From NCBI RefSeq assembly GCF_035645195.1, contig NZ_DASQNA010000039.1, positions 186,001-250,000 of the forward strand: DNA of 64,000 nucleotides. Direction: 5' to 3'. The notes under the pieces were generated by a model. The model did not search any database. It was given only the letters and a program-made list of their open reading frames with translations, and was not told the DNA's origin. A program made the translations under genes and the position numbers. Position 1 is the first letter of the stretch. Every line of letters starts with the position of its first letter. Shown here in pieces: positions 49,011-62,717 of this stretch. Source of the stretch: Paenibacillus sp. Lineage in GTDB: Bacteria > Bacillota > Bacilli > Paenibacillales > YIM-B00363.

Positions 49011-49039
49011 TTGATTACGGCAAAGTTTTCCACTATTCT
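49011..49039 (+). promoter_or_regulatory. promoter upstream of the c-di-GMP riboswitch
   Basis: TTGATT (49011-49016) and TATTCT (49034-49039) are 17 bases apart in an AT-rich stretch, placing the start about 20 bases before the riboswitch. Confidence 0.65.
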
Positions 49040-49064
49040 ATTGCCGAAAGCTACAATTTTCGTA

Positions 49065-49168
49065 GTTCTTTTGGAACAAAGGCAAAATCGTCGAAAGACG
49101 ATGACGCAAAGCCATGGGTCTTCCTCCCTGCCCGAGCAGGGAAAAGATCGCCAGGTTGCTCAAGGAAC
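49065..49168 (+). promoter_or_regulatory. cyclic-di-GMP-I (GEMM) riboswitch
   Basis: All core parts are present. The closing stem pairs GTTCTTTTG (49065-49073) with CAAGGAAC (49161-49168). GGCAAA is followed by a perfect ATCGTC-GAAA-GACGAT hairpin with the GAAA tetraloop (49087-49102), then the invariant GACGCAAAGCC (49103-49113). The second arm holds CCCTGC-CCGA-GCAGGG and a purine-rich receptor strand, then GCCAGGTTGC. It senses c-di-GMP and, with the terminator at 49198, should control the SLH and RHS genes. Whether ligand turns expression on or off is not clear from the sequence. Confidence 0.92.
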
Positions 49169-49197
49169 AATGTCGTAGCCGCTTTCTGCTTATCTAC

Positions 49198-49240
49198 GCT
49201 CCTGAGCGCCTGACCATGGCCTCGGGAGCTTTTTATTTTT
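49198..49240 (+). terminator. riboswitch-associated intrinsic terminator
   Basis: GCTCCTGAG and CTCGGGAGC form a 9-bp stem with a 14-base loop, followed by TTTTTATTTTT. It lies 29 bases after the aptamer and 24 bases before the next start codon, as expected for an expression platform. Confidence 0.9.
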
Positions 49241-49264
49241 GCAAGGCAGGGGAGAGAGGAAGAC

Positions 49265-51319
49265 ATGGGTAGAAGGTTGTTGCCGAAGTTCGCACGAAGG
49301 TTCGCGATTGGCTTGTGTTTAACGGCAGTGTGTGGGGGCGCCGCTTTCGTCGCGTACGCGGACACTTCGTTCGCGGTTACGGACGAGCCGGTCGCGAGCA
49401 AGGCGGGGGAAGGCACGTACATCTCGGGCGAGCACATGGTGTGGTACGAGGAGGACGGAAAGGGACGCCAAAATATTTTCTATCGGAATTTATCCACCGG
49501 GGTGGAGAAACAAGTTACAAACTACCCGTCCATGAAGGATTTGCCGCGCGTGACGGTCACCTCGTCGGGCGAGGTCGTCGTCGTATGGATCGACAAGAAG
49601 TATCTGGGTTCCGGTTCGGGGATGTGGGATGTGCTCGCGTATTATATGAATTCGCAAGAGGAAGTAAAGTTGTCTTCGGTCATTGCGCCGCACGTCGGCC
49701 TCAGCGTGTCGGGGGATCATGTCGCATGGTATCAGACGTGGAAGGGCGAGATGTACGCTTACGATTTATCGGCAAGGAAGGAAACGCCGCTCGGTCTTGG
49801 TACCAAGCCTACGGTCGTGAACGGAAATATCGCTTTTATTACCGGCGACGGAGATATCGCCTTGCATCACTTGATAACCGGGGAAACGAAGAGTTTAGTA
49901 GATCTTCCATATCACTTGTATCCTGCCGAGTTGACTTATAACGGAAAGCAGGTGCTATGGAAGGAAAGCGATCTCGACAACCGCACCAAGTATGTCCTCC
50001 TGGATCCAAGCGATGCGGGCGCCGCGCCGGTCGACTTGACGACAAAGTCGAAAAAGGAAGTGGAGTACCCGAATCTGTACCTCGGCGACGGACATGCGGC
50101 TTGGGTGGAGTGGAATGCCGGAACGCCCCGACTAACGGGCGTCGATCTGACGGCGAAACAAACCTATGAAGTTGCGCGCGGGGATCATGTCATTCATACG
50201 GTGTCTTTCGCGGGAGACCGTCTGATTATGAAGGCGGCCGATGGGCGGCTGGTGGCGCGTTCGCTGGAAATGTCGGCACCCGCTCCTGCCGAGAGGACCG
50301 AAGGCGAGAGCAGGGACCGCGATTCGCTGTCCGCGACAACGGAACGGAAGGCGGAGGCGTCGCCGGTGCGGGCGGGACCGATGGGGGCTGTGCTTACGTC
50401 GAAGGACGGAACGGCCCGGCTGGTTATTCCGGCCGGTGCTCTGGAATCGGAGGTCGAGGCTCGCTTCGAAATGGATGCCGTTATACAAGCGCCGAACGAA
50501 GCGAAGACCGAGCTCGGGGTGAAACGCGGGGCGACCCTCGCGTGGCGTGTCGATTTGGACGGGCGAACGCTGCCGAAGGACAAGCCTGCGGAGTTGGCGC
50601 TCAAGTTCGACGGGCTGCGCTGGTCGGAGGAAGAGCGGGAAAAGATGTCGATTTATAGATGGGAAGCGGAGGCCAAAGAGTGGAAGCGGATCGGCGGAAC
50701 GGCGGATGCCGAAACATTCGAAATTCGAGCATCGCTCACGAGGTCCGGCACATACGCGGCATTCGTCTACGACGTCGCCTTCTCCGATACGGTCGGACAC
50801 TGGGCGGAACGTCCCGTCGAAATATTGGCTGCGTTAGAAATCGTGAACGGTATGGAAGCGACTCGGTTCGCGCCGGACGCGACGCTGACGCGAGCGCAGT
50901 TTACGAAAATGCTGCTTGGCGCAATGGGCATTGAGCCGGAGACGGACGGGGGCCAGTCGTTCACCGACGTCGCCGCCTCGCACTGGGCGGCTCCTTGGGT
51001 CAATGCCGCCGCTCGCGCCGGAATCGTGCAAGGGTCGAACGGCACATTTGATCCGGAAAGCGCCTTGACGCGGGAGCAGATGGTGGCGATGCTCGTGCGG
51101 GCGCTGGAACGGCAGCGGCCGATATCGGAGCGCGAATCGCATTTGCCTTTCGACGACGCGTCGGCGATCAGCGACTGGGCGAGAACTTCCGCTGCGACGG
51201 CTGCAGCGCTCGGGTTGATCCAAGGCAGGGACGGCAAGTTCTTGCCGCATGCGTCGTCTACCCGCGCCGAGGCGGCGACGGTCATGTACCGCCTGCTCCG
51301 GGTGGCGGGCGACTTGTAG
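49265..51319 (+). CDS. SLH-domain surface protein with beta-propeller-like region
   Basis: 684 residues. Signal peptide to about residue 32 (FAIGLCLTAVCGGAAFVAYA); residues about 45-345 carry repeating beta strands of the TolB/YncE kind (SGEHMVWYEEDGKGRQNIFY, SGDHVAWYQTWKGEMYAYDL); residues about 370-500 look like a ZU5-like beta module (LVIPAGALE, TRSGTYAAFVYD); three SLH repeats follow (SDTVGHWAERPVEIL, TDVAASHWAAPWVN, ISDWARTSAATAAAL). It should be anchored to cell-wall polymer. ATG 49265 follows GGGGAGAGAGGAAG. It is the first gene after the c-di-GMP riboswitch and is 15 bases before the RHS gene, so both probably form one operon. Confidence 0.9.
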   Translation: MGRRLLPKFARRFAIGLCLTAVCGGAAFVAYADTSFAVTDEPVASKAGEGTYISGEHMVWYEEDGKGRQNIFYRNLSTGVEKQVTNYPSMKDLPRVTVTSSGEVVVVWIDKKYLGSGSGMWDVLAYYMNSQEEVKLSSVIAPHVGLSVSGDHVAWYQTWKGEMYAYDLSARKETPLGLGTKPTVVNGNIAFITGDGDIALHHLITGETKSLVDLPYHLYPAELTYNGKQVLWKESDLDNRTKYVLLDPSDAGAAPVDLTTKSKKEVEYPNLYLGDGHAAWVEWNAGTPRLTGVDLTAKQTYEVARGDHVIHTVSFAGDRLIMKAADGRLVARSLEMSAPAPAERTEGESRDRDSLSATTERKAEASPVRAGPMGAVLTSKDGTARLVIPAGALESEVEARFEMDAVIQAPNEAKTELGVKRGATLAWRVDLDGRTLPKDKPAELALKFDGLRWSEEEREKMSIYRWEAEAKEWKRIGGTADAETFEIRASLTRSGTYAAFVYDVAFSDTVGHWAERPVEILAALEIVNGMEATRFAPDATLTRAQFTKMLLGAMGIEPETDGGQSFTDVAASHWAAPWVNAAARAGIVQGSNGTFDPESALTREQMVAMLVRALERQRPISERESHLPFDDASAISDWARTSAATAAALGLIQGRDGKFLPHASSTRAEAATVMYRLLRVAGDL

Positions 51320-51334
51320 AAGGGGTGTGAAAGA

Positions 51335-54300
51335 ATGAGGACATTCTTTGCCATGCATCGAACGGGCCGCCTCATGTGGCGCCAAGCGATCAGTATTTTG
51401 CTCATTGCGTCGCTCGTACTTCCCGGCGTGCCGATCTTCCCCGGGTTGGGGCCCGGCAAAGCGCTGGCGGCAACGACGGTCGGCGTAGCGCCGGCGAAGC
51501 TGGTTACCGTTTATGGCGGGAACGCCAACATTACGTGGAACTACGGCGTCAAACCGCACACATCGTCGATCGAGGCATGCGAAGTAGAAGAAATCCCTCC
51601 GGAACAACGGGGAGAGCCGTACGAGGACGAAGAGGGCAATATGGTATACCCTCCGACGCATACGATGGTGTCGCGCGGTTCCGTCGGGTCGAAAGCACCC
51701 GGGTTCCCCGGCGAGACGGAGTTGTTCGTATGGAACGGCAACGTCGACGGGAAGCCCTTGCTGGACGGAAGCTATACCGTATGCGTTGTGCCGAGCGGAG
51801 CGCCGGAATATTTCGGCTTCACCGAGGTAAGCGTGGATAACCCGAAGCCTCCGGCGCCGGCCTTCGTGCACGTCGTGCCGAGCCTTGACGCGAACGGCAG
51901 CGGGGTGCACAGGATCCGCGGCATAGCGGAGCATGGGACGAAAGTGACGGTTCGCATCGATTACATGATGCGGGACGGATACGAACAGGTGCCGAGTCCA
52001 GGACCGTCGCCCACATACACGGTGGAAATTCCATACGGCAAAATGCCGGACGACAAACATTTACAATGGGCGCTCAAGCCGGAATGGCGCGACGAGCCCG
52101 TGTCGATCGACAACTATTTCACGAACTTTCCGCTCCGCGACGACAATCGTCCGGAGCAGTATATCCGAGAATGGGAAATCGCCGTCCCGCTCAGATCTTA
52201 CGAGACCGCCTCGATTACGGCGACGGCGGAACGGGCTGCGACGAACCCTTTCTTTCATCCGCAGCAACCCGATAAAAACATATCCGGCGTTTCTATTCCC
52301 GTGAAGGTGCTGCGGTACGTTGCCCCGGCTTGGGACGTGAACTGGGAGGCGCTGGCAGGATACTACTACAAAGCGGAAAACGTGCCTGCGATGATCGCGG
52401 GCGCGGAGCGGATCGCGACCGATAACGGCATCGAGGTCAACGTATGCACCGGAGATCAGCGCTGCGCGGGGCCGATCGACAAAGGTTGGAATTTGATTAT
52501 TCAAGATCCGGCATTGGCGGGCAACATCACGGAAGAAGATTTAGAGGATTTGACATACGAAAAAATTGCGAATCGGGCCGATTACCCAAAACCGCTTTTC
52601 TGGGACCCAATTAATTTGGCGACCGGGGACTTTATTTTTTCCCATACTAACTTATCTCTTGCGGCGATCATGCCGCTGGAGTGGAAACTGACGTACCACA
52701 GCCGAGACAAGTATGATGGAGCGGTCGGCGTCGGCTGGCATCATTCCTTCGAATGGCGGATCGTGCGGCAAGGCGCGAACGCGATGACGGTATTGACTCC
52801 CGATGGGGCTAACTTTGTGTATGAAAGAACAAGCAGCGGCGAGTACCGAACGCCGGCAGGCACCTACAATACGCTGAAACAGCTAACCGACGGCACGTAT
52901 GAAATGAAGACGCCGCAGCTGTGGACGTACGCATTCCGGGAGGACGGCGCACTGTATCGCATCACGGACAACAACGGCAACGTCGCAAACTTGTCGTACG
53001 AAGGCTCCGTGCTAAAGCGGGTCGATACGGTCGGGGCGAGCCTGTCATTCGCATACGGAAGCGCAGGTAAGATCGCGTCGGTCACCGACCACGCGGGGCG
53101 CACGGTGTCGTACGAGTATGATGCGCTGACGCACGATTTGCTTGCGATGAAGCTGCCCGACGGCGCAACGATCCGCTATACCTACGACAGTTTGCATCAG
53201 ATGACGAGTATTACGAACCCGAACGAGAGCGGCACGCTGGTCAACGAATACGATGCGAACGGCCGCGTGGTGTATCAGAAGGACTTCTCGGGCGGGGAAG
53301 CGCGCATGACGTATTTGCCGGAAGAGGGCAAGACGGAAGCCTTCGACCCGCTAGGGCGAAAGAAGGTTTACGAGTTCGACGATCGCTTTCGTCAGACTGC
53401 CGTCCATTATCCCGATGGCACCGTAGAGCGGTTCGAGTACGATGCGAACGACAATTTGATCGCGAAGACGGATCGCAACGGCAACGCCTGGACGTTCGGA
53501 TACGACGCGTTCGGCAATTTGACGTATGCCGCAGATCCCCTGGGCCATGCCACGACGCTGCAGTATAACGCTTGGAGCCAACCGACGGAAATCGTCGATG
53601 CGCTCGGGAACAGAACCGCTTTGGGCTATGACGAGCGAGGAAACCTTGTGTCGATAACGGATCCGCTCGGCCGCGTCTCGACGATCGAACGGGACGCGCG
53701 AGGTCTTCCGGTCGCGATGATTAACGGCGAAGGCGAACGAACGGAAATGACCAACGACGACGAAGGATTCGTTCGTTTCGTGAAGGATCCGGAAGGCTAT
53801 ACCCGGGAATTCATCCGCGATGCGTTCCACCGCGTGACGGCAGTCGTTGATCCGCTCGGAAGTCGAGACGAGGTCGTGTATGATCCGCGGGATCGGGTCG
53901 TTGAGCGAATCAATGCGCTAGGCTACAAGGATATGTTCGGTTACGATAAGAACAGTAATTTGACAACGGTCGTCAACCGCGAACAGGAAGGCTACGGGTA
54001 TCGGTACGACGCGTTCGACCGGCTCGTGTCGGTAACCGATCCGTACGGCAATGTCACGACGTACGAGTACGATGCGGCAGGCAATCGGACCAAGATTGTC
54101 GAGCCGAACGGCGCGGTGACGGAATTCATCTACGACAACGCCGATCGGGTGGATTGGCTGCGCGACGCGGAAGGCAACGTGACGGATTACGAGTACGACG
54201 GCAACGGCAATGTAACCGCGATCATCGATCCGCGTCAAGGACGTACCGAGATTGCCTATGATGCTCGCAATCTGCCGGTGAAGGTTACCGACCCGGAGGG

Positions 54301-57300
54301 CGGCGTCACCGAGTTCGGATATGACTCTCTCGGGCGGTTGATCAGCGAGAAGGATCATTACGGCGGCGTGACTTCCTATTCCTACGATGCAGCCGGCCAA
54401 TTAACGAAGCTGACCGACGCGCTCGAACAGACGACCGAATACGGCTACGACAAGGCGGGACGCTTGACGAGCGTGAAGCGTCCGACCGGCGCCGTATGGA
54501 CGATGGAATACGACGACCGCGGCTTGCTCGTCGCGACTGTCGATCCGCTCGGACATCGGGCGACGATGGAACGCGACGCGCTCGGCCGCGTTACCGTCGC
54601 ACGCGATGAAAGCGGCGCGGCAACATCTTACACGTACGATGCGGCGGGGCGCGTGACATCGATAATTGATGCCCTGGGCGCGATGACGGAGTTCAGTTAC
54701 GACGCAATGGACCAGATTACGTCGGTGAAAGACGCGAAGGGCGGCGTAACCCAATATCGATACGACGCGCTCGGTCGCTTAACGGCGGTCGTCAACGCGA
54801 AGGGCGATGCGACGCTGTATACCTACGATGCCGCGGGCAACTTGAAAACCAAGACGGACGCCGAAGGACGAGCTACCGTATATGAGTATGATCTACTCAG
54901 CCGGCTGAAATCCCAAATCGATCCGCTCGGCAAAGTCACGTCGTTGCTGTACGACGGCATGGGCAACGTCACGTCGGTGACGCATCCGGATGCAACGACG
55001 ACAAGGTACAGCTACGACCTCGCCAACCGGCTGACCGGCATTGCGTATCCGGACGGGGAAACCGTATCGTATGCGTACGATAAGGTCGGTCGCAGAACGT
55101 CGATGGCCGATGCGTCGGGAACGACGACATATACGTATGACGCGTTGTCCCGATTGACGGGCGTGACGGACGGACGCGGACAGACGATTCAGTACGGCTG
55201 GACGCCGAACGGCCAACGCGCGAGCATGACGTATCCGGACGGCAGCGTCGTTACGTACGAGGTCGACCTGCTTGATCGGATTGTAGGGGTCGTCGACACG
55301 CAAGGACGCCGCACCTCGTATACCTACGACGCGCGCGGGCTGCTGACAACGAAGTCGCTGCCTTCCGGCGCCGTAACCGCCTACGCTTACGATGCGCTGG
55401 GACAACTGCTGGAACTGACGCATCGGAATCAATACGGCCAGGCCGTCGAGCGATTGATTTACGAGTATGATCCGGTCGGCAACCGGACGAAGATGGAGCG
55501 GATCGAGGATTCGGACGATGAAGACGATGCCGGATCCACCCGCGTCGTGTCCGAATACGCGTACGATGCGCTGAATCAGCTCACCGCTGTGAATAAGTAC
55601 AATGATGGCGCCCCCGGGTCGCTCATCGCGACGTCGTATACGTACGATAAAGTCGGCAATCGATTGTCCAAATCGACGGCGTGGGGCGATCTGTTCGACC
55701 TGGAGGAATACGTGTATAACGCGGGCGATCAGCTCGTCCGTTGGCAAAACGGTCCCGACTATAAAGAATATACGTATGACTTGCGCGGCAATCTGCTGCA
55801 GACCGTCGGTGTTGTCGGGCAGACCGTACCGACATGGTCCGTGACGGCTTCCGTTTACGGGGATGCGGTCGTGACGAACGTATACGGGGAGCCCGACCCG
55901 TTCGCCTCCTTGTCTTCCCTTGAGGCGGCTGTGCCGGAAGTGCTTGACCAGTATGTGTGGAACGGGGCGAATCGCCTCGTGAAACATACGAACGAGCGCG
56001 GCGATATTTCCCGCTACGGGTACGATGGCGACGGCAACCGCGTGTCGATGATACTGGATTTGAACCACGGTCCGAATGGCAACGGGAATGGACCTGGCAA
56101 CGGCAACGGTAACGGTAACGGCAATGGCAATGGCAATGGCAACGGTAATGGGAACGAAACCGGAAAGAGCGACAAGTGCGGCCGCGTCGTGCCGCCGGGC
56201 TTTGTCCCGCCGGGGCTTTCGAAAAAATGCGATCCGGTCGACGGCGAATACCCGACGGAACATCCTTTCGGACCGCGCGACGGCTGGGAAATGCAGTATA
56301 AGAAAAAGCATTGGGAGTTCCACTATACGAACGATGTCAGCCTAGCGCTTCCGGAACCGATCCAAATTACCGAGGCCGATCCGGCCAAATGGAAGGAAAC
56401 GTTCGTGTACGGCGCCGGCGGAGAACGTGTGTCATACACCTACCTCCCTGCGTACGACGCGACCAATGGTTGGGAACCGACTCCGGGATCCGGAGGAGCC
56501 GAACCAGGGGTTACGCCAAAGACGCTGTGGTATTTGTCCGATGCGCTCGGCAGCGCGATCGGTTTGATCGAGCAAGACGGCCGCGTATCGGCACGGTACC
56601 ATTACGATGAGTTCGGCATCCCGCTCGACGCGAAGAAGTTCGACGCGAACTGGCCTGGACCGGATAATCTGTTCGGATACACAGGATTGGGTTACGATTT
56701 CCACAGCGGACTGACCTACGCGCGCGCTCGGTATTATCAGCCGGAAATCGCGCGATTCATAAGCGAGGATTTGTATAAGGGGGATATGTGGAATCCGCAA
56801 AGTCAGAACCCTTATGCGTACGTGGAGAATAACCCGCTGATCTATACAGACCCAAGCGGACTGACTAGAAGCGGTGACATTGCAAGAGCAAACATAGAGT
56901 ATGCGAGAAAGGTCGGCAGCGGCAGCGAAGCGTTTTGGGCGATAAGGTCCAAACTCGGTACTGAAGCGAGACAGTTTTTCCCCGAAGCCGAGAACGATGC
57001 CAATAATACGTTCAAATGGCTATTCAGCCTAGCGACGAAAACGAATGGGAACCCGGACTACAACACCGACGGGAACGCAGCATGGGCTACGGAAAAACTT
57101 GTGGCGATATTCCAAGGGCAGTATGAATTGGAACAAGAAGCTGTTCCGGGCATGCTTGTTGAAGCGGCGGTAGACTTGGTTGGAAGCAGATTTAAACTAA
57201 CACGAAATGTCCATCTGAAAAAGCCGATACAGCTCCACCATTATGTAACCAATAAAAGTAAAAAGTTCACCGCACAAATGGAAAAGATAGTAACAAAATA

Positions 57301-57520
57301 CGGATTAAAGCTTGATGAAAAGTGGAATAAAGAGTATCTCCCTCATCAGGGCAGACATCCCGATGCATACCATCAATATATTTTAGACAATCTACAAAGA
57401 TTTGATGAGGTTGCCGCAGGGGACAAGGACGTCTTTTTGCAACTATTCGAAGGGTTAAAAGGAGAAATTAGAAGCAATCCAGAAATGATGTATAAGGCTT
57501 ACTGGGAAGCTAAGAAGTAA
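51335..57520 (+). CDS. RHS-repeat polymorphic toxin with C-terminal AHH-type nuclease-like domain
   Basis: 2061 residues. Signal peptide at about 1-45, a unique N-terminal region to about 420, a DUF6531-like start (FWDPINLATGDFIFSHTNL), then about 1100 residues of YD/RHS repeats (YDAxGR units) forming a beta-cage. A Gly-Asn repeat lies at about 1580-1608, and the RHS core ends at RARYYQPEIARFISED and NPLIYTDPSG (about 1840). The last 215 residues are unrelated: an LHH motif near 1967 and HQGRHPDAYHQY near 2005-2015 fit the AHH branch of HNH-like nucleases. ATG 51335 follows AAGGGGTG. The tip and the next gene are visibly richer in A+T than the core. It probably delivers a nuclease-like tip to neighbours. 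Confidence 0.92.
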   Translation: MRTFFAMHRTGRLMWRQAISILLIASLVLPGVPIFPGLGPGKALAATTVGVAPAKLVTVYGGNANITWNYGVKPHTSSIEACEVEEIPPEQRGEPYEDEEGNMVYPPTHTMVSRGSVGSKAPGFPGETELFVWNGNVDGKPLLDGSYTVCVVPSGAPEYFGFTEVSVDNPKPPAPAFVHVVPSLDANGSGVHRIRGIAEHGTKVTVRIDYMMRDGYEQVPSPGPSPTYTVEIPYGKMPDDKHLQWALKPEWRDEPVSIDNYFTNFPLRDDNRPEQYIREWEIAVPLRSYETASITATAERAATNPFFHPQQPDKNISGVSIPVKVLRYVAPAWDVNWEALAGYYYKAENVPAMIAGAERIATDNGIEVNVCTGDQRCAGPIDKGWNLIIQDPALAGNITEEDLEDLTYEKIANRADYPKPLFWDPINLATGDFIFSHTNLSLAAIMPLEWKLTYHSRDKYDGAVGVGWHHSFEWRIVRQGANAMTVLTPDGANFVYERTSSGEYRTPAGTYNTLKQLTDGTYEMKTPQLWTYAFREDGALYRITDNNGNVANLSYEGSVLKRVDTVGASLSFAYGSAGKIASVTDHAGRTVSYEYDALTHDLLAMKLPDGATIRYTYDSLHQMTSITNPNESGTLVNEYDANGRVVYQKDFSGGEARMTYLPEEGKTEAFDPLGRKKVYEFDDRFRQTAVHYPDGTVERFEYDANDNLIAKTDRNGNAWTFGYDAFGNLTYAADPLGHATTLQYNAWSQPTEIVDALGNRTALGYDERGNLVSITDPLGRVSTIERDARGLPVAMINGEGERTEMTNDDEGFVRFVKDPEGYTREFIRDAFHRVTAVVDPLGSRDEVVYDPRDRVVERINALGYKDMFGYDKNSNLTTVVNREQEGYGYRYDAFDRLVSVTDPYGNVTTYEYDAAGNRTKIVEPNGAVTEFIYDNADRVDWLRDAEGNVTDYEYDGNGNVTAIIDPRQGRTEIAYDARNLPVKVTDPEGGVTEFGYDSLGRLISEKDHYGGVTSYSYDAAGQLTKLTDALEQTTEYGYDKAGRLTSVKRPTGAVWTMEYDDRGLLVATVDPLGHRATMERDALGRVTVARDESGAATSYTYDAAGRVTSIIDALGAMTEFSYDAMDQITSVKDAKGGVTQYRYDALGRLTAVVNAKGDATLYTYDAAGNLKTKTDAEGRATVYEYDLLSRLKSQIDPLGKVTSLLYDGMGNVTSVTHPDATTTRYSYDLANRLTGIAYPDGETVSYAYDKVGRRTSMADASGTTTYTYDALSRLTGVTDGRGQTIQYGWTPNGQRASMTYPDGSVVTYEVDLLDRIVGVVDTQGRRTSYTYDARGLLTTKSLPSGAVTAYAYDALGQLLELTHRNQYGQAVERLIYEYDPVGNRTKMERIEDSDDEDDAGSTRVVSEYAYDALNQLTAVNKYNDGAPGSLIATSYTYDKVGNRLSKSTAWGDLFDLEEYVYNAGDQLVRWQNGPDYKEYTYDLRGNLLQTVGVVGQTVPTWSVTASVYGDAVVTNVYGEPDPFASLSSLEAAVPEVLDQYVWNGANRLVKHTNERGDISRYGYDGDGNRVSMILDLNHGPNGNGNGPGNGNGNGNGNGNGNGNGNGNETGKSDKCGRVVPPGFVPPGLSKKCDPVDGEYPTEHPFGPRDGWEMQYKKKHWEFHYTNDVSLALPEPIQITEADPAKWKETFVYGAGGERVSYTYLPAYDATNGWEPTPGSGGAEPGVTPKTLWYLSDALGSAIGLIEQDGRVSARYHYDEFGIPLDAKKFDANWPGPDNLFGYTGLGYDFHSGLTYARARYYQPEIARFISEDLYKGDMWNPQSQNPYAYVENNPLIYTDPSGLTRSGDIARANIEYARKVGSGSEAFWAIRSKLGTEARQFFPEAENDANNTFKWLFSLATKTNGNPDYNTDGNAAWATEKLVAIFQGQYELEQEAVPGMLVEAAVDLVGSRFKLTRNVHLKKPIQLHHYVTNKSKKFTAQMEKIVTKYGLKLDEKWNKEYLPHQGRHPDAYHQYILDNLQRFDEVAAGDKDVFLQLFEGLKGEIRSNPEMMYKAYWEAKK
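56077..56157 (+). repeat. GGCAAY-type hexamer repeats encoding a Gly-Asn tract
   Basis: About thirteen units related to GGCAACGGTAAC run through this stretch, encoding alternating Gly and Asn in the RHS protein just before the final core segment. Third-position variation suggests age or selection for the protein rather than very recent slippage. Confidence 0.85.
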
Positions 57521-57577
57521 TAGTATGAACGTGCCGCTTTACTGCAGAGGAACCGAATCTTCGTGGGAGGCTGAAGG

Positions 57578-58141
57578 GTGAAGTATTATAAATTAATGAC
57601 GGACTTTTCATCGAACGAGGATGTCGTTTGTACCATTGCCGATTTACAAGGCATTCAAAAGTTTGACGTGCTTAAAGGGAAGCCCGCGGTTCATTGGAAC
57701 GAGAATGTGACCTTTGAGTACAATGCAGCGGATGGGTCGGTATTGACGGATTACCTCGCCAACGATATGGGATGGTTTCTCGTTTCCGAGGCATTTAAGA
57801 CGGCCATCCAACAGACGGCTGAAGGACAGGTCGAATTTTTGCCCGTAAAACTTGTGGAAACTCAGACCCGGCAAACCGTGATCTATTATGTCGTTAATGT
57901 AACGAAAGTAGTAGATGCGCTGGACTTGGACCATTCTGATCATACCTTCTTCGAAGCCAATAATATCAGAGTGTTGTCTGTGAAAAAGTATACGCTGCTT
58001 GAGGGAGCCATCGGGGATGCGAACATATTCAAATTATTAGGAGATGAAATTCCGGTCTTCGTATCCGAATCGGTCAGGAACAGAATAGAAGAATCCAAAT
58101 TAACGGGATGCAAGTTTTTGGAAGTGGGAATCCACAGATAG
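57578..58141 (+). CDS. Imm11-type (DUF1629) immunity protein
   Basis: 187 residues, soluble, no signal peptide. The layout matches the Imm11/DUF1629 family: N-terminal YYKLMTDFSSNEDVVC, HWNENVTFEYN, VLTDYLANDMGWFLVSE, FLPVKLVE and VVDALDLDHS. Members neutralise polymorphic toxins encoded just upstream. The GTG start at 57578 has GGGAGG 7 bases before it. It is 57 bases after the RHS toxin stop and shares the lower GC of the toxin tip, which supports a cognate pair that moved together. Followed by a strong terminator. Confidence 0.82.
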   Translation: MKYYKLMTDFSSNEDVVCTIADLQGIQKFDVLKGKPAVHWNENVTFEYNAADGSVLTDYLANDMGWFLVSEAFKTAIQQTAEGQVEFLPVKLVETQTRQTVIYYVVNVTKVVDALDLDHSDHTFFEANNIRVLSVKKYTLLEGAIGDANIFKLLGDEIPVFVSESVRNRIEESKLTGCKFLEVGIHR

Positions 58142-58159
58142 CTTTCGTCAGTAGTAATG

Positions 58160-58197
58160 ACCGCAATGCGAGTAACTTACGCATTGCGGTTTTTCTT
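58160..58197 (+). terminator. intrinsic terminator of the RHS/immunity unit
   Basis: CCGCAATGCG and CGCATTGCGG form a perfect 10-bp stem with a 9-base loop, extended by an A-T pair and followed by TTTTTCTTT. Confidence 0.92.
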
Positions 58198-62462: not shown

Positions 62463-62717
62463 ATGTTCGGGAAAAAGAAGGAGAAGGAAAATTGCTGCGG
62501 GATCGTGATCGAAGAGGTGAAGGAAGGCGGGGAGGCGTCCGCGGCGGAAGCATGCTGCGACGAGGCTGCGAACAAAGCGGGCGTCGAGGCGTGCTGCGAC
62601 GAGGCCGCGAACAAAGTGGGCGTTGAGGCGTGCTGCGACGAAGCTGCAAACAAAAACAAAGCTGACGCGGAAGCATGCTGCGAAGAGGAACGCCGCGCGG
62701 CGGCGGGTTGCTGCTAA
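62463..62717 (+). CDS. small cysteine-pair repeat protein, candidate metal(loid)-binding peptide
   Basis: 84 residues, 12 of them Cys in six CC pairs: residues 11-12, 31-32, 44-45, 57-58, 72-73 and 83-84. A 13-residue unit EACCDEAANKxGV is repeated almost perfectly at 29-41 and 42-54 and in part from 55. The rest is acidic and Ala-rich with a basic start (MFGKKKEKENCCG). ATG 62463 follows ACAAGGAGGAG. There is no signal peptide. It ends an ArsR-permease operon, so binding of As(III) or a soft metal by vicinal thiols is a strong guess. The short CCGIVIEEV start recalls small companions of DUF318 permeases, but the repeated version is not one I know. Confidence 0.85.
   Translation: MFGKKKEKENCCGIVIEEVKEGGEASAAEACCDEAANKAGVEACCDEAANKVGVEACCDEAANKNKADAEACCEEERRAAAGCC
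62547..62654 (+). repeat. 39-base in-frame tandem repeat
   Basis: Units at 62547-62585, 62586-62624 and 62625-62654 (partial) differ by a few third-position changes and encode EACCDEAANKxGV. The high similarity suggests recent duplication by slippage or unequal exchange. Confidence 0.85.

What the first reader, a model, noticed from the sequence alone, without database searches (positions are those of the whole stretch)
49011..58197. A c-di-GMP riboswitch controls an SLH protein, an RHS toxin and its immunity gene
A complete GEMM-I aptamer with its own terminator precedes two closely spaced genes: an SLH-anchored surface protein and a secreted 2061-residue RHS protein with an AHH-like tip. 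An Imm11-type gene and a terminator complete the unit. c-di-GMP is a surface/biofilm signal, so the layout suggests contact-dependent competition tied to the sessile state, with the SLH protein as a possible wall anchor or dock. I know of no described system with this combination.
Basis: partly seen in the sequence, partly recalled or inferred. Interest (0 to 1): 0.88.

Follow-up and report, generated by a model that had tools for sequence, protein, structure and literature searches.

The report
c-di-GMP riboswitch on wall-linked toxin operon
In Paenibacillus and its relatives, an RNA sensor for the signal molecule c-di-GMP sits in front of a conserved pair of genes, a cell-wall-bound protein and a large swappable-tip toxin, and it most likely switches this bacterial weapon off, not on, when c-di-GMP is high.

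Summary
A canonical c-di-GMP-I aptamer (window 49072-49164) with its own promoter and terminator precedes an SLH wall protein, a secreted 2061-residue RHS protein with an AHH nuclease tip, an Imm11 immunity gene and a closing terminator.

It is not a one-off. Of 395 genomes of the order, 34 carry the SLH gene directly followed by the RHS gene. In 27 of these, from at least eight genera and three families, a c-di-GMP-I aptamer heads the operon; four further named genomes have it too. Tips (nucleases, lipase, lysozyme, colicin E5, Hint) and following genes vary freely, as in polymorphic toxins.

In 22 of the 27, the aptamer's P1 helix runs straight into a U-tract, so ligand-stabilised P1 is itself the terminator. 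In four more, including the window, the aptamer's 3' strand forms an antiterminator that ligand binding would prevent. Both designs predict that c-di-GMP turns the operon OFF: it would be made when c-di-GMP is low (motile or dispersing cells), not in the sessile state.

Ligand binding, the OFF response and the SLH protein's display role are inferred, not shown. I found no description in open-access papers.

The parts
49011..49039 (+). Promoter (TTGATT, 17 nt, TATTCT) of the unit, separate from the clpC operon
   Evidence: Sequence; clpC terminator upstream. 8 of 12 consensus bases, so inferred
49065..49071 (+). P1 5' strand of the aptamer (extends outside the Rfam model)
49072..49164 (+). c-di-GMP-I aptamer, canonical ligand-contact base
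   Evidence: RF03167 68 bits; RF01051 71.5 bits; custom model R1 92 bits (by construction)
49150..49166 (+). Aptamer 3' strand (GCCAGGUUGCUCAAGGA): part of P3/P1 in the ligand-bound form, 5' arm of the antiterminator otherwise
49162..49168 (+). P1 3' strand
49198..49240 (+). Intrinsic terminator (stem 49198-49229, then U-tract); its 5' arm and loop 49200-49212 pair with 49150-49166 in the antiterminator
49265..51319 (+). Wall protein, 684 aa: signal peptide, beta-propeller (about 36-336), beta-rich linker domain, three SLH domains (506-681)
   Evidence: Pfam, AlphaFold2 mean pLDDT 86, Foldseek matches to TolB, BamB and WD40 propellers
51335..57520 (+). RHS polymorphic toxin, 2061 aa: signal peptide, two Ig-like domains, RHS shell, C-terminal tip
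56849..57520 (+). AHH-type HNH/EndoVII nuclease tip after the DPSG core end; GC 0.45 against 0.58 in the RHS core
   Evidence: PF14412 E 7e-14; GC
57578..58141 (+). Imm11 immunity gene (GTG start), GC 0.44
   Evidence: PF07791 E 2e-30; Imm11 listed with Tox-AHH in PMC3482391
58161..58197 (+). Closing intrinsic terminator

Best explanation
A c-di-GMP-I riboswitch that works as a transcriptional OFF switch controls a conserved operon encoding a wall-bound SLH/beta-propeller protein and a secreted RHS polymorphic toxin with its immunity gene. When c-di-GMP is low, the 3' strand of the aptamer pairs with the 5' arm of the terminator (49150-49166 with 49200-49212) and transcription runs on. When c-di-GMP is high, the ligand locks P1/P3, the terminator forms, and wall protein, toxin and immunity protein are not made. 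In most relatives the design is shorter: P1 itself is the terminator stem. The wall protein probably holds or displays the RHS shell at the cell surface, and the tip kills neighbours that lack the matching immunity gene. Shown here: anatomy, conservation, tip diversity, predicted fold of the wall protein. Inferred: ligand binding, the OFF response, display by the SLH protein, killing.
For: Aptamer over the curated score in the window and in independent loci by Rfam itself. SLH and RHS genes adjacent in 34 of 34 genomes with the full-type SLH gene, overlapping by 4-8 nt in many. Aptamer heads 27 of the 34 and all 4 extra named genomes; about 19 aptamers per 6 Mb make this position far from chance. 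Fused P1-terminator in 24 of 29 linked leaders against 12 of 44 other c-di-GMP-I leaders, Fisher p 4e-6. In the five leaders with a separate terminator, unliganded folding of growing transcripts shows the antiterminator replacing P1 as soon as the terminator's 5' arm is out (window 0.93 against 0.00), and the pairing beats shuffles, combined p 0.001; about seven of twelve control leaders with a separate terminator do not behave this way. 29 tips fall into AHH, colicin E5, lipase, lysozyme, Hint, Tox-WTIP and unknown types; next genes are unrelated to each other. Lower GC of tip and immunity gene. CsaB, needed for SLH anchoring, is in the genome.
Against: No binding or expression data. Genomes related by descent are not independent, so the p-values overstate the case. 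The cross-locus control for the antiterminator does not separate matched from unmatched pairs well, and some of the five leaders are not significant alone. At equilibrium the window terminator always wins, so the switch must be kinetic. Seven loci (six of one genus, and Gorillibacterium) lack the aptamer though their genomes have it elsewhere, so riboswitch control is not essential to the SLH-RHS pair. G263 has a close RHS gene with no SLH partner. If immunity is repressed together with the toxin, cells with high c-di-GMP would be open to toxin-making siblings; no internal promoter was seen but that scan is weak.
Confidence: 0.72

Rival explanations
1. ON switch: c-di-GMP promotes read-through, so wall protein and toxin are made in sessile or biofilm cells.
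For: c-di-GMP riboswitches of both signs are known (established knowledge); surface proteins are common targets of high c-di-GMP.
Against: In 22 of 27 loci the only terminator before the start codon is P1 itself, which the ligand should stabilise. In the window the antiterminator uses aptamer bases that must be in P1/P3 when ligand is bound.
Confidence: 0.15
2. Riboswitch control is real but concerns mainly the wall protein; the RHS toxin is driven mostly by its own or read-through transcription, and the SLH protein does not work with it.
For: Riboswitch plus propeller protein without RHS occurs in G005 (L039) and in two degraded loci L151, L152; seven SLH-RHS pairs have no aptamer.
Against: SLH and RHS genes are adjacent in every genome with the full-type SLH gene, with 0-90 nt gaps or overlaps. 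L152 keeps an immunity-like gene after losing the RHS gene, so it looks like decay of the full unit.
Confidence: 0.2
3. The RHS protein acts as an adhesin or structural surface protein (teneurin-like) and the tips are not weapons.
For: Secreted RHS/YD shells with Ig-like N-terminal domains resemble bacterial teneurin-like proteins (PMC13018210).
Against: Tips match known toxin families and swap between close relatives; the AHH tip is next to Imm11, a listed partner. The same paper finds teneurin-like tips toxic.
Confidence: 0.08

Closest known systems
WapA/WapI and other Gram-positive Rhs polymorphic toxins
   Same: Sec signal peptide, RHS/YD shell, variable C-terminal tip, immunity gene next to it
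   Different: No cell-wall-binding module recognised by Pfam in this RHS protein; a separate SLH protein is always encoded upstream; c-di-GMP-I riboswitch in the leader
Bacterial teneurin-like proteins (PMC13018210)
   Same: YD shell with variable toxic tip and downstream immunity gene; Gram-positive members carry S-layer or wall-binding domains
   Different: There the anchor is on the same chain; here it is a separate protein. No riboswitch is mentioned in that paper
c-di-GMP-I (GEMM-I) riboswitches, transcription-terminating OFF type
   Same: Canonical aptamer, intrinsic terminator, surface-related target
   Different: Target is a polymorphic toxin operon; in most loci P1 doubles as the terminator stem
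TfoY control of type VI secretion in Vibrio (PMC6618264)
   Same: An antagonistic weapon made only at low c-di-GMP, together with motility
   Different: Indirect, through translation of a regulator in Gram-negatives; here the switch would sit on the toxin operon itself
SLH motif RNA (PMC6429828)
   Same: Structured RNA upstream of genes for SLH-domain proteins
   Different: A different, orphan RNA motif of Clostridia, Negativicutes and Synergistaceae; not c-di-GMP-I

Membership tests
c-di-GMP-I riboswitch (RF01051) | Covariance-model score over the curated cut-off | tested here: met
   71.5 bits against 35; related family RF03167 68 against 59
c-di-GMP-I riboswitch (RF01051) | Canonical ligand-contact bases (G, A, C) | tested here: met
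   GGC before the AAA run, GCAAAG, and the 3' C are present (alignment); position names from own knowledge
c-di-GMP-I riboswitch (RF01051) | Binds c-di-GMP | not testable with these tools
   Needs in-line probing or calorimetry
c-di-GMP-I-GGC variant (RF03167) | G at the variant contact position | tested here: not met
   Consensus GACGCGAAG, window GACGCAAAG; not filed as the GGC variant despite the score. The meaning of the name is my reading of the consensus
Rhs polymorphic toxin | RHS/YD repeats and RHS core end followed by a tip | tested here: met
   PF05593 25 stretches, TIGR03696 E 3e-16
Rhs polymorphic toxin | Tip varies while the shell is conserved | tested here: met
   29 tips, 14 percent mean column identity, many toxin families; RHS N-terminal part 39 percent
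Rhs polymorphic toxin | Cognate immunity gene downstream | tested here: met
   Imm11 here; small variable genes downstream elsewhere. Neutralisation not tested
AHH nuclease toxin (PF14412) | Curated score and the HH, N, H motif | tested here: met
   52 bits against 22; LHH, LPHQGRHP in the tip sequence
SLH wall protein | Three SLH domains and CsaB in the genome | tested here: met
   PF00395 three stretches; TIGR03609 272.9 bits
WapA | Own wall-binding module on the RHS chain | tested here: inconclusive
   No Pfam wall-binding domain at E 1; residues about 335-412 look vaguely LysM-like by eye

The most novel reading that the evidence does not exclude
A widespread Gram-positive weapon system in which c-di-GMP, through an aptamer whose closing helix is the terminator, directly shuts off a polymorphic toxin and its dedicated SLH/beta-propeller display partner, so that antagonism is a trait of motile or dispersing cells.
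Probability: 0.5. Interest if true: 0.82.

Novelty: new variant of a known kind. Interest (0 to 1): 0.7.

Why it matters
Riboswitches are not known, as far as I could find, to control polymorphic toxins directly. A conserved OFF switch would say that in Paenibacillus and relatives contact weapons are set aside in the biofilm state and deployed by moving cells, parallel to TfoY and type VI secretion in vibrios. The constant SLH partner offers a testable answer to how a Gram-positive Rhs shell without a recognised wall anchor is held at the surface. The P1-as-terminator layout is also a compact riboswitch design worth testing.

Tried and rejected
A close-relative scan of genome contigs with the SLH protein gave nothing; an alignment of the RHS N-terminus worked. 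The idea that Rfam's best hit (GGC variant) means a variant aptamer was rejected: the variant base is absent. The idea that G147 lacks the aptamer was rejected: it lies one gene further upstream, before an extra propeller/MORN gene. Cross-pairing of aptamer and terminator arms between loci as a control was not informative, because sequences are shared. A LysM domain in the RHS N-terminus was suspected but not supported by Pfam, and Foldseek gave only generic Ig-like matches. Seven paper searches for a riboswitch with Rhs, SLH or toxin genes found no description of this unit; two searches on Rhs toxins in Paenibacillus likewise.

Full report
What is there. The window is part of a 5.95 Mb genome in the same genus (by GTDB grouping) as Paenibacillus alkalitolerans. 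Between the ctsR-mcsA-mcsB-clpC operon and a penicillin-binding protein gene lies a self-contained unit: promoter 49011-49039, c-di-GMP-I aptamer 49072-49164, terminator 49198-49240, SLH gene 49265-51319, RHS gene 51335-57520, Imm11 gene 57578-58141, terminator to 58197.

The aptamer. Rfam reports the c-di-GMP-I-GGC model (68 bits), and the classic RF01051 model gives 71.5 bits. The base that marks the GGC variant is absent, so this is an ordinary c-di-GMP-I aptamer. The genome has 19 of them, and only one RHS locus by its DUF6531 domain.

Conservation. The SLH protein has relatives along its whole length in the order. Of 395 genomes, 34 carry it next to an RHS gene whose N-terminus matches ours; three of these RHS genes are broken or cut by a contig end. 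The gap between the two genes is small, and in many genomes the frames overlap by 4 or 8 nt. In 26 of the 34 a custom covariance model finds an aptamer directly upstream of the SLH gene; Rfam alone confirms those sampled. In a 27th, Paenibacillus sp. Soil787 (G147), it lies one gene further up, before an extra propeller/MORN gene. Four more named genomes, among them P. alkaliterrae and Thermobacillus xylanilyticus, have the same layout. Seven loci lack the aptamer: six of one genus and Gorillibacterium timonense; their genomes still have one to six c-di-GMP-I aptamers elsewhere. One genome outside the order (G432) has SLH-RHS at a contig start, so its leader cannot be judged.

Polymorphic toxin character. 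Of 29 tips, Pfam recognises AHH (here), colicin E5, lipase, phage lysozyme, Tox-WTIP, Hint pretoxin and others; many are unknown. The genes behind them are mutually unrelated. In the window, GC falls from 0.58 in the RHS core to 0.45 in the tip and 0.44 in the immunity gene, as expected of an exchanged cassette. Imm11 is a listed partner of Tox-AHH (PMC3482391). Some loci carry extra tip and immunity fragments downstream.

The sign of the switch. In 22 of the 27 aptamer-headed SLH-RHS loci the P1 helix is lengthened and its 3' strand runs straight into a U-tract, with no other terminator seen before the start codon. Over all 29 linked leaders tested (including two decayed loci and G005) 24 pass this test, against 12 of 44 other c-di-GMP-I leaders (Fisher p 4e-6). 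Because ligand binding stabilises P1 (established for this class), high c-di-GMP should end transcription. The window, its relative G001 and two others have a separate terminator; one further locus (L148) falls just short of the fused criterion because its U-tract is interrupted. Where the terminator is separate, the aptamer's 3' strand can pair with the terminator's 5' arm and loop. Folding ever longer unliganded transcripts of the window shows P1 dominant until the RNA 3' end reaches about 49204, then the antiterminator at about 0.9 until 49225, then the terminator. All five leaders of this kind (G005 included) show the antiterminator taking over, and about seven of twelve control leaders with a separate terminator do not. 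The pairing energies beat shuffles with combined p 0.001, though some of the five are weak alone. Both designs give OFF. A precedent exists: TfoY, made only at low c-di-GMP, drives type VI secretion and motility in vibrios (PMC6618264).

The SLH protein. AlphaFold2 gives a confident N-terminal beta-propeller, a beta-rich middle and three SLH domains; the propeller resembles TolB, BamB and WD40 platforms, which bind other proteins. CsaB is encoded on the same contig. The RHS protein has a signal peptide and Ig-like N-terminal domains but no Pfam wall-binding domain. A display role for the SLH protein is the natural reading but is inference.

What remains open. No ligand binding, expression or killing was measured. 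Relatedness among genomes makes the statistics softer than the numbers suggest. Co-repression of the immunity gene with the toxin is a puzzle unless immunity has its own start. Open-access literature searches found no account of this unit; subscription papers were not searchable.

Verdict.

Noticed in passing
window 62463-62714: 84-residue cysteine-rich protein made of repeats of EACCDEAANK, next to an ArsR-family regulator (61078) and an ArsP-type permease (61527); no family match beyond a weak Galaxin repeat. Possibly a metal- or arsenic-binding protein.
   Followed up: partly
L152 and L151: Riboswitch plus propeller-only gene without SLH domains; in L152 followed by a 208-residue gene like the immunity gene of L038 and L148: decayed loci, one with an orphan immunity gene.
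   Followed up: partly
L039:4051-6940: In G005 the aptamer precedes a propeller protein with copper-amine-oxidase N-terminal and MORN domains and no RHS gene; the extra gene in Soil787 (L156) ends in a similar MORN tail.
   Followed up: partly
RHS N-termini, e.g. window 51335-51470: RHS signal peptides share a PxxPG motif (such as GVPIFPG, GIPLLPS) between the hydrophobic stretch and the cleavage site.
   Followed up: no
L210:1978-2099 and 2778-2905: Thermobacillus xylanilyticus has two c-di-GMP-I aptamers about 700 nt apart upstream of the SLH gene.
   Followed up: no
L157:8707-14233: Array of orphan RHS-core/tip and immunity fragments behind the RHS gene of G432, outside the order.
   Followed up: no
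L165, L174, L186, L176 and others: P1 running directly into a U-tract also occurs in about a quarter of other c-di-GMP-I leaders of the order, so P1-as-terminator may be a general compact design.
   Followed up: partly
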